In this document: positions 25,030 to 25,899 of the stretch, in pieces
Layout: every line of letters begins with the position of its first letter
Position numbering within the stretch: position 1 is the first letter of the stretch
Notes under the pieces: generated by a model
Databases searched by the model: none
What the model was told of the DNA's origin: nothing
What the model saw: the letters and a program-made list of their open reading frames with translations, nothing else
Translations under genes and position numbers: made by a program
Source: an uncultured Salinisphaerales bacterium
Lineage (GTDB): Bacteria > Pseudomonadota > Gammaproteobacteria > Nevskiales > CAJXLF01
Assembly (NCBI GenBank): GCA_913055805.1
Contig: CAJXLF010000002.1
Coordinates: 186,001 to 250,000 of the forward strand
Length of the DNA: 64,000 nucleotides
Reading direction: 5' to 3'

Positions 25030-25521
25030 ATGAGCGACAAACGCACACGCATCATCAAGAAATATCCCAATCGCCGTCTTTACGATACGGAAGTCAGCCG
25101 CTATATCACACTCAATGATGTACGCGACCTGGTACTTGAGCGTATGGACTTTCAGGTGATCGACAAACAGAGTGGCGAAGATATCACGCGTTCAATTCTG
25201 TTACAGGTCATCAGCGAGGAAGAAGAAGGGGGCAACCCCATGTTCACCACGGAAGTGCTGGTACAGTTCATCCGTTTCTATGGCGATTCCATGCAGAACA
25301 GTGTCAGTCGTTATCTTGAGCTGAGCATGCATTTCTTCGACGAGCAGCAGTCCCAGTTCAAGGAGAAGCTGCAAAGAATCGTCGGTCACAGCAACCCTCT
25401 GCAGGCCCTGCGCGAACTCTCGCAACAGCAAATGCCCTTATGGAAAACCGTGCGCAAAGAGTTCCTGAACAGCCTGAATCCGTCCACTGCGACGCGCAAG
25501 AAAACCAACAAAGAAAACTGA
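25030..25521 (+). CDS. phaR: Polyhydroxyalkanoate synthesis repressor PhaR
   Basis: A 163-residue PhaR/PhbR regulator that binds PHA granules and represses phasin and sometimes PHA-cycle genes. The DNA-binding N-terminal domain contains IIKKYPNRRLYDTEVSRYIT near residue 10, followed by the conserved LVLERMDFQVIDKQSGEDIT segment and a C-terminal helix rich in Gln. Lies 90 bases after the thiolase. Members of this family are used as markers of PHA-storing bacteria. Confidence 0.92.
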   Translation: MSDKRTRIIKKYPNRRLYDTEVSRYITLNDVRDLVLERMDFQVIDKQSGEDITRSILLQVISEEEEGGNPMFTTEVLVQFIRFYGDSMQNSVSRYLELSMHFFDEQQSQFKEKLQRIVGHSNPLQALRELSQQQMPLWKTVRKEFLNSLNPSTATRKKTNKEN

Positions 25522-25654
25522 CGTTCGTAACGCGAACAGCTGCCAATTTCCGCTAACAATCTCATTCACCGGGGTTTTTCTGACCCCAAAACATGACTGT
25601 TTGCCGCTGGCCTGAATCTTGCTAATTCCTGATTACAGGAACTGCAAAAAGGGG
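25522..25654. other. Intergenic spacer after phaR
   Basis: The gap between phaR and pnp is 428 bases. This first part holds weak inverted repeats (GTTCG/CGAAC near 25523 and GGGGT/ACCCC near 25571) and no ORF I can support. The rest of the gap contains a promoter, a candidate small RNA with its own terminator, and the pnp terminator, listed separately. Short minus-strand reading frames there are shadows. Confidence 0.6.
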
Positions 25655-25683
25655 TTGACAGATTCACTTCTCATTCTTATACT
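25655..25683 (+). promoter_or_regulatory. Strong sigma70 promoter of the candidate small RNA
   Basis: Perfect -35 TTGACA at 25655-25660, exactly 17 bases, and -10 TATACT at 25678-25683. Predicted transcription start is A25691 or near. It is the best sigma70 match seen in the window, points away from phaR and toward pnp's 3' end, and precedes no open reading frame of its own strand. Confidence 0.85.
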
Positions 25684-25689
25684 GCACCG

Positions 25690-25847
25690 CAACATACCGG
25701 TTGGTAGCTAAGGCAGACAAACAAAAGGCCTGCGAGCAGGCCCAAAGTCGGATTGGCTAAAACCGAACGGTATTAACCGAGTCTCCTCCGAAAGGTCGCA
25801 AAGACCTTTCTCGCACCTTGCCCCCTCCCCCAGGGGGCTTTTTTTTG
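25690..25847 (+). ncRNA. Candidate small regulatory RNA (about 155 nt)
   Basis: Defined by the consensus promoter at 25655-25683 and a textbook terminator at 25820-25846. Structure visible by eye: a weak UACC/GGUA hairpin at 25695-25706; GGCCUG/CAGGCC hairpin at 25727-25742; CGGU/ACCG hairpin at 25768-25779; unpaired CUCCUCC at 25783-25789; perfect 8-bp hairpin GAAAGGUC/GACCUUUC at 25790-25810; then the terminator stem with a CCCCC loop. No convincing ORF or SD-start pair was seen. CUCCUCC is complementary to Shine-Dalgarno sequences, as in C-rich trans-acting sRNAs such as sX13 of Xanthomonas. It does not resemble 6S, SRP, RNase P or tmRNA. Family unknown. Confidence 0.7.
25820..25846 (+). 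terminator. Intrinsic terminator of the small RNA
   Basis: GCCCCCT (25820-25826), loop of five C, AGGGGGC (25832-25838), then eight T residues 25839-25846. Strong on the plus strand. In the minus direction it lies beyond the pnp terminator and lacks a U-run, so it serves the plus-strand RNA. Confidence 0.88.
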
Positions 25848-25899
25848 CCCCGATAGAGAGGCTTTTCCCGGCTCCGGCACAGAAACCATGCCGCCGCCC

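What the first reader, a model, noticed from the sequence alone, without database searches (positions are those of the whole stretch)
25655..25847. Orphan small RNA candidate with a perfect promoter and an exposed anti-Shine-Dalgarno motif
TTGACA-N17-TATACT leads into about 155 nt of non-coding sequence with several hairpins and ends in a 7-bp GC stem plus eight U. A single-stranded CUCCUCC (25783-25789) sits between two hairpins and the terminator loop is all C. Known C-rich sRNAs (sX13 in Xanthomonas, alphaproteobacterial 'cuckoo'-type RNAs) use such loops to block ribosome-binding sites. I do not recognise a family for this one. It lies between phaR and the pnp 3' end.
Basis: partly seen in the sequence, partly recalled or inferred. 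Interest (0 to 1): 0.68.

Follow-up and report, generated by a model that had tools for sequence, protein, structure and literature searches.

The report
PHB-regulator-linked anti-Shine-Dalgarno small RNA
This is an undescribed small RNA gene, found in nearly every sequenced genome of the bacterial order Nevskiales, whose promoter carries the binding site of PhaR, the sensor of stored bioplastic (PHB), and whose most conserved single-stranded piece is built to block ribosome-binding sites, so it probably tells the protein-making machinery that the cell's carbon stores are filling up.

Summary
In detail: TTGACA-N17-TATACT, a short non-coding transcript, an exposed CUCCUCC and a strong terminator lie at 25655-25847. 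It is not an orphan. Its 3' 67 nt (25780-25846: UCUCCUCC, hairpin, UCGCACCUU linker, terminator) occur in 80 of 85 genomes of the order (Nevskiales, named by relatives), up to five copies each, typically between phaR and pnp. Both hairpins covary strongly (74 double-sided changes against 11 in shuffles). No Rfam family reaches its cut-off; nearest are RF02278 ('toxic'/double-hairpin sRNA, B. pertussis S17) and RF00519 (MmgR). New finding: 58 of 76 distinct promoters carry a PhaR operator fused to the -10 box (TATACTGCACYGCAACA). The own phasin-like gene has the same operator in the same register; copies far from phaR have it too; the three PhaR-less genomes that keep the sRNA lack it. Best reading: an anti-Shine-Dalgarno sRNA repressed by PhaR, released when PHB granules titrate PhaR, that then blocks translation of a set of mRNAs. 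The RNA family is well supported; PhaR control is strongly inferred from motifs; targets are unknown (glpK is a weak lead). It works like MmgR and S17 but passes neither membership test. No expression data were available.

The parts
25655..25660 (+). -35 box TTGACA
   Evidence: TTGACA is also the consensus of 58 relatives' promoters
25678..25683 (+). -10 box TATACT
   Evidence: TATA and the final T invariant in the 58 box-bearing promoters (partly by construction of the search pattern, which fixed TA...T)
25683..25694 (+). PhaR operator TGCACCGCAACA, overlapping the last base of the -10 box and the start region
   Evidence: matches published PhaR consensus cores; present in 59 of 76 distinct upstream regions of relatives, 58 abutting -10, against 1 of 76 for the reversed pattern; same 13-mer TGCACCGCAACAT at the own phasin-like promoter
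25690..25779 (+). transcribed 5' leader (start predicted at about 25690), structured but not conserved in sequence; includes hairpin GGCCUGC/GCAGGCC
   Evidence: folding; absent from the BLASTN matches of relatives; start inferred from the -10 position
25780..25846 (+). conserved sRNA core, about 67 nt; possibly a processed short form (inferred from S17)
   Evidence: model R1: 62.6 bits in the window, 80 of 85 genomes of the order
25782..25789 (+). single-stranded anti-Shine-Dalgarno motif UCUCCUCC
   Evidence: UCUCC nearly invariant in 76 distinct rows; about 99% unpaired in the core fold
25790..25810 (+). hairpin 1, GAAAGGUC-GCAAA-GACCUUUC
   Evidence: 99.2% of cells paired, 6 of 8 pairs with changes on both sides
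25811..25819 (+). conserved single-stranded linker UCGCACCUU, possible second mRNA-binding site
   Evidence: alignments; second role inferred
25820..25846 (+). intrinsic terminator: 7-bp stem, CCCCC loop, U8
   Evidence: 5 of 6 modelled pairs covary
25030..25521 (+). phaR, PHB-responsive transcriptional repressor
   Evidence: TIGR01848 153.4 bits, cut-off 109.45; PF07879 and PF05233
23728..24939 (+). acetyl-CoA acetyltransferase (thiolase, phaA-like); ORF as listed, true start probably further in
   Evidence: PF00108, PF02803
25950..28115 (-). pnp, convergent neighbour; its terminator at 25944-25909 ends before the sRNA, so the mature transcripts do not overlap

Best explanation
A trans-acting small RNA gene with its own sigma-70 promoter, repressed by PhaR. 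When little PHB is stored, PhaR sits on TGCACCGCAACA across the -10/start region and shuts the promoter. When PHB granules form, PhaR is drawn onto them (as shown for PhaR in other bacteria) and the sRNA is made together with phasin. The roughly 157-nt transcript, or a roughly 67-nt processed 3' form, exposes UCUCCUCC 5' of a stable hairpin and a CGCACCUU linker before the terminator; these pair with purine-rich Shine-Dalgarno regions and block translation of a set of mRNAs. Shown here: the conserved, covarying RNA; the conserved promoter and operator; linkage to phaR. Inferred: transcription, PhaR binding, processing, base pairing, Hfq dependence, targets.
For: 80 of 85 genomes of the order carry the RNA (68 of 72 near-complete ones), often in 2-5 copies. 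Covariation: 98.6% of cells paired, 11 of 14 pairs with double-sided changes, 74 such cells against 10.8 +/- 2.7 in shuffles and at most 7 in slid controls. UCUCCUCC and the linker stay unpaired in 73 distinct cores (mean 0.92 and 0.80). phaR-sRNA-pnp order in most relatives. PhaR box in 59 of 76 distinct upstream regions, 58 fused to -10; controls 1 of 76 (reversed pattern) and 1 of 76 (downstream). Nine of ten copies with neither phaR nor pnp on the stretch of up to 8 kb also have it. The own phasin-like gene has TTGACA-N17-TATGATGCACCGCAACAT, same register. All three PhaR-less genomes that keep the sRNA (G009, G013, G039) lack the box. The two near-complete genomes of genus g15 lack both the sRNA and PhaC. 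Precedent: PhaR binds the mmgR sRNA promoter in S. meliloti (PMC12542648); CU-rich single strands of S17/RF02278 act on ribosome-binding sites (PMC11722255, PMC5688073).
Against: No expression, binding or target data. 17 of 76 upstream regions lack the box, including some in genomes with PhaR (for example L015, L016). Relatives outside the order (L103, L106, L109-L111, L115) lack it, and PhaR-less Salinisphaera keep the sRNA, so PHB control cannot be its only purpose. The PhaR-less cases may be a single loss. A duplex with the phasin leader is no better than shuffles. The single operator in the window is not significant as a degenerate pattern (2 found, 2.9 expected).
Confidence: 0.7

Rival explanations
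1. A distant member of RF02278 (double-hairpin/'toxic' sRNA, S17): same anti-Shine-Dalgarno 5' end, hairpin and terminator, with PhaR control as a lineage-specific addition. (Compatible with the best explanation; it concerns ancestry.)
For: RF02278 aligns over its full length to the window (19.9 bits), L018 (23.9), L109 (28.0) and L106 (26.9); model R1 hits the RF02278 locus L032 at 22.5 bits, E 5e-4; core length close to S17S (67 nt).
Against: All far below the 50-bit cut-off; hairpin 1 differs (GAAAGG/CCUUUC, no CCUCC loop) and the CGCACYUUG linker is absent there; PhaR box near only about 3 of 30 RF02278-type loci (L041 by eye); the shared part is short and low in complexity.
Confidence: 0.35
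2. The element is only the 3' end and terminator of phaR mRNA.
For: It lies downstream of phaR in the same direction, with no strong phaR terminator found before it; read-through is possible.
Against: Own conserved promoter; ten copies without phaR or pnp nearby; kept where phaR is lost; conserved unpaired elements that a terminator does not need.
Confidence: 0.05
3. A global translation damper or decoy rather than a regulator of specific mRNAs: UCUCCUCC binds Shine-Dalgarno sequences at large when carbon is in surplus.
For: The motif mimics the 16S tail; the RF02278 RNA ncS27 slows growth when overexpressed (PMC5688073).
Against: S17S hardly impaired E. coli growth (PMC11722255); the conserved second element suggests specificity.
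Confidence: 0.15
4. Coding, antisense or artefact.
For: A 79-aa ORF overlaps on the minus strand.
Against: That ORF has no Pfam match; structural covariation; the transcript does not overlap mature pnp.
Confidence: 0.01

Closest known systems
RF02278 Betaproteobacteria toxic sRNA / double-hairpin RNAs (ncS03, ncS05, ncS27, ncS62) and B. pertussis S17
   Same: Anti-Shine-Dalgarno 5' end of the core, one hairpin, terminator, 60-70 nt core, multicopy, carbon-related expression (ncS27 family)
   Different: Sequence of hairpin 1, no CCUCC loop, CGCACYUUG linker, PhaR operator, phaR-pnp location; CM score far below cut-off
MmgR / alpha-r8 family (RF00519), with Caulobacter SisA-D
   Same: Small anti-Shine-Dalgarno sRNA of PHB-making bacteria whose promoter is repressed by PhaR (MmgR); multicopy siblings in some genera
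   Different: In alpha-r8 the motif UUUCCUCCCU lies after a weak hairpin, here before a strong one; best relatives score 25-27 bits against a cut-off of 41, window 14.1 over the terminator only
sX13 and cuckoo-type C-rich sRNAs
   Same: CU/C-rich unpaired stretch complementary to ribosome-binding sites
   Different: The C-rich loop is not conserved here; neither was listed among the sub-threshold matches
PhaR regulon promoters (phasin, SMa1961, mmgR)
   Same: TGCRNYGCA palindrome placed on the -10/start region
   Different: The regulated product is a member of a new RNA family in Gammaproteobacteria

Membership tests
RF02278 toxic/double-hairpin sRNA | Covariance-model score at or above 50 bits | tested here: not met
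   19.9 bits in the window, best relative 28.0
RF02278 toxic/double-hairpin sRNA | CU-rich anti-Shine-Dalgarno 5' end of the core, one hairpin, intrinsic terminator, 60-70 nt | tested here: met
RF02278 toxic/double-hairpin sRNA | Second CU-rich site in the loop of hairpin 1 | tested here: not met
   loops GCAAA, CUAGC, UAAC and others
RF02278 toxic/double-hairpin sRNA | Growth inhibition on overexpression, Hfq dependence, RNase E processing (S17) | not testable with these tools
   needs an experiment
RF00519 / alpha-r8 MmgR | Covariance-model score at or above 41 bits | tested here: not met
   14.1 bits in the window, 25.4-26.9 in relatives
RF00519 / alpha-r8 MmgR | Single-stranded UUUCCUCCCU between hairpin and terminator | tested here: not met
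   linker is UCGCACCUU; definition from PMC12559287
RF00519 / alpha-r8 MmgR | PhaR site in the sRNA promoter (MmgR of S. meliloti) | tested here: met
   site present by sequence; binding not tested
PhaR regulon | TGCRNYGCA operator on the promoter in a genome that encodes PhaR | tested here: met
PhaR regulon | PhaR binds the site and represses; PHB relieves | not testable with these tools
   needs EMSA and reporters
sX13 / cuckoo-type RNA | Conserved C-rich hairpin loops | tested here: not met
   terminator loop varies freely; neither family listed up to E 10

The most novel reading that the evidence does not exclude
PhaR control of an anti-Shine-Dalgarno sRNA arose independently in Gammaproteobacteria (this family) and Alphaproteobacteria (MmgR), or is ancestral to both, so that coupling PHB storage to translation through a small RNA is a general design; the sRNA, not PhaR alone, carries the storage signal to carbon and nitrogen uptake genes.
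Probability: 0.3. Interest if true: 0.7.

Novelty: new variant of a known kind. Interest (0 to 1): 0.57.

Why it matters
An order-wide sRNA family that appears undescribed (no Rfam family at cut-off; no paper found in the library searched) comes with a testable input (PhaR/PHB), a defined operator and a defined seed. The only PhaR-controlled sRNA met in the papers read here is MmgR of S. meliloti, and a review read here says that riboregulation in the main PHB producer Cupriavidus necator remains undeciphered (PMC8401924). A second, unrelated-looking case next to phaR itself would show that PHB status is passed on after transcription in distant bacteria. It also shows that RF02278-like anti-Shine-Dalgarno RNAs may reach well beyond Betaproteobacteria.

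Tried and rejected
Chromatiales as the order (my first guess): named relatives are Nevskiales/Salinisphaerales. RF02278 and MmgR membership: below cut-off. PhaR box as a general feature of RF02278-type loci: about 3 of 30. Phasin as target: duplex no better than shuffles. Degenerate PhaR pattern in the window alone: not significant; the case rests on comparative data and the exact 12-mer (0.02 expected per window). Candidate targets by GGAGGAGA-N2-9-ATG in the own genome: 25 places against 1 in the reversed control; not all start plausible genes; among those that do are glpK, amtB, hflC, ccoS/fixS and an MFS transporter. Across relatives glpK keeps stronger complementarity (median -10.3 kcal/mol) than five other genes (-3.3 to -6.8); amtB does not (-4.9). 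The glpK query was chosen for its perfect match and some starts are uncertain, so this is only a lead.

Full report
Observation. No Rfam family reaches its cut-off in the window apart from two tRNAs elsewhere. The own genome has one copy.

A conserved RNA family. BLASTN of 25640-25850 against 61 genomes, the own one included, found matches in 49, nearly all confined to about 25765-25850. A covariance model of the 65-nt core (R1) finds the RNA in 80 of 85 genomes of the order (68 of 72 near-complete ones), with up to five copies and tandem arrays, and in 13 of 370 sampled genomes of the class, three of these only marginally (E above 1e-5); clear matches outside the order fall in families f101, f126 and f164. 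A DNA pattern scan of named genomes gave 58 stretches, almost all from Salinisphaera, Nevskia, Solimonas, Sinimarinibacterium, Hydrocarboniphaga, Fontimonas, Panacagrimonas, Algiphilus, Abyssibacter, Oceanococcus and similar genera, so the order is taken to be Nevskiales.

Structure. On 76 distinct sequences 98.6% of paired cells form standard pairs, 11 of 14 pairs show double-sided changes, and 74 cells do so against 10.8 +/- 2.7 in shuffles and at most 7 in slid controls. L111 and L115 keep hairpin 1 with largely different stem sequences. Unpaired but conserved are UCUCCUCC before hairpin 1 and (A/U)CGCACYUUG after it; the terminator loop is free to vary. UCUCCUCC is 0.92 unpaired on average in 73 distinct cores. 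The alignment was fitted to the model structure, which favours pairing, but the slid controls and the changed stems argue against this as the source.

Place. phaR runs into the sRNA and pnp faces it in most relatives. Of 59 copies on named stretches 44 have phaR and 43 pnp on the stretch; ten have neither.

Promoter and PhaR. In 58 of 76 distinct upstream regions the -10 box runs into TGCRNYGCANMA: consensus TTGACA-N17-TATACTGCACYGCAACA. The reversed pattern scores 1 of 76 and the 160 nt downstream 1 of 76. Published PhaR consensus sequences are CTGCN3GCAG, TGNTGCN3GCAA, YTKNTGCRNYGCANMAR and WNWD2NYGCRNYGCRNH2WNW (PMC3206438, PMC12849132, PMC12542648). In the own genome a phasin-like gene (Phasin_2 E 1e-4, 22.9 bits, just under the 24.9-bit cut-off) has TTGACA-N17-TATGATGCACCGCAACAT: the same 13-mer in the same register. 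Among the first 100 of 116 degenerate sites listed genome-wide, the exact 12-mer occurs only at these two promoters. Nine of the ten copies without phaR or pnp have the box. PhaR is missing from four Salinisphaera-group genomes; the three that keep the sRNA lack the box, though they keep PhaC. The two near-complete g15 genomes lack both sRNA and PhaC while keeping PhaR. These losses may each be a single event.

Mechanism. PhaR represses at promoters and is titrated by PHB granules in several species. An operator over -10/+1 predicts repression, so the sRNA should be made when PHB accumulates. RF02278 RNAs and S17 act through CU-rich single strands on ribosome-binding sites; S17S is a 67-nt RNase E product. 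The core here is of the same length and begins at the same kind of motif, so processing is plausible but unproven. In the own genome GGAGGAGA with an ATG 2-9 nt on occurs 25 times against 1 in the reversed control; this mostly reflects that Shine-Dalgarno sequences exist, and glpK is the only candidate with some support across relatives.

Family comparison. RF02278: 19.9 bits in the window, up to 28.0 in relatives, cut-off 50. RF00519 (MmgR): 14.1 bits in the window, up to 26.9 in relatives, cut-off 41. Both resemble the RNA in layout and neither claims it. The tie with MmgR is regulatory: both promoters carry a PhaR site near the start (PMC12542648). Verdict: a new sRNA family, a new variant of the known PhaR-controlled, anti-Shine-Dalgarno kind.

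Noticed in passing
L032-L061: RF02278 matches 77 of 276 sampled genomes of the class at E <= 0.001, only two over the cut-off; many share a promoter-proximal ATATTAGAA...ATACTGATT. The Betaproteobacteria label and the 50-bit cut-off look too narrow.
   Followed up: partly
L168, L124, L135 and others, promoter spacers: Many copies carry an inverted repeat TTKAC-N6-GTMAG over the -35 box (for example TTGACCGATCGGTCAA), and Salinisphaera copies TACGAAAGTCGTA in the spacer: a second regulator site is likely.
   Followed up: no
L173, NZ_JAGHQU010000006.1: Record named Endozoicomonas sp. G2_2 has the Salinisphaera-type dksA-phaR-sRNA-pnp locus on a contig of the same length as one of G017 (genus g6); the name looks wrong.
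   Followed up: partly
G025, G035 (genus g15): Two small genomes keep PhaR but lack both PHA synthase and the sRNA.
   Followed up: partly
L111: In family f164 the sRNA lies between a thiolase gene and pnp with no phaR found between them.
   Followed up: no
L094, own genome C7:155535-155549: A palindromic PhaR-like site lies between ftsZ-like and lpxC-like genes.
   Followed up: no
L215 (G045): Three copies of the sRNA within 2.2 kb, each with its own PhaR box.
   Followed up: yes
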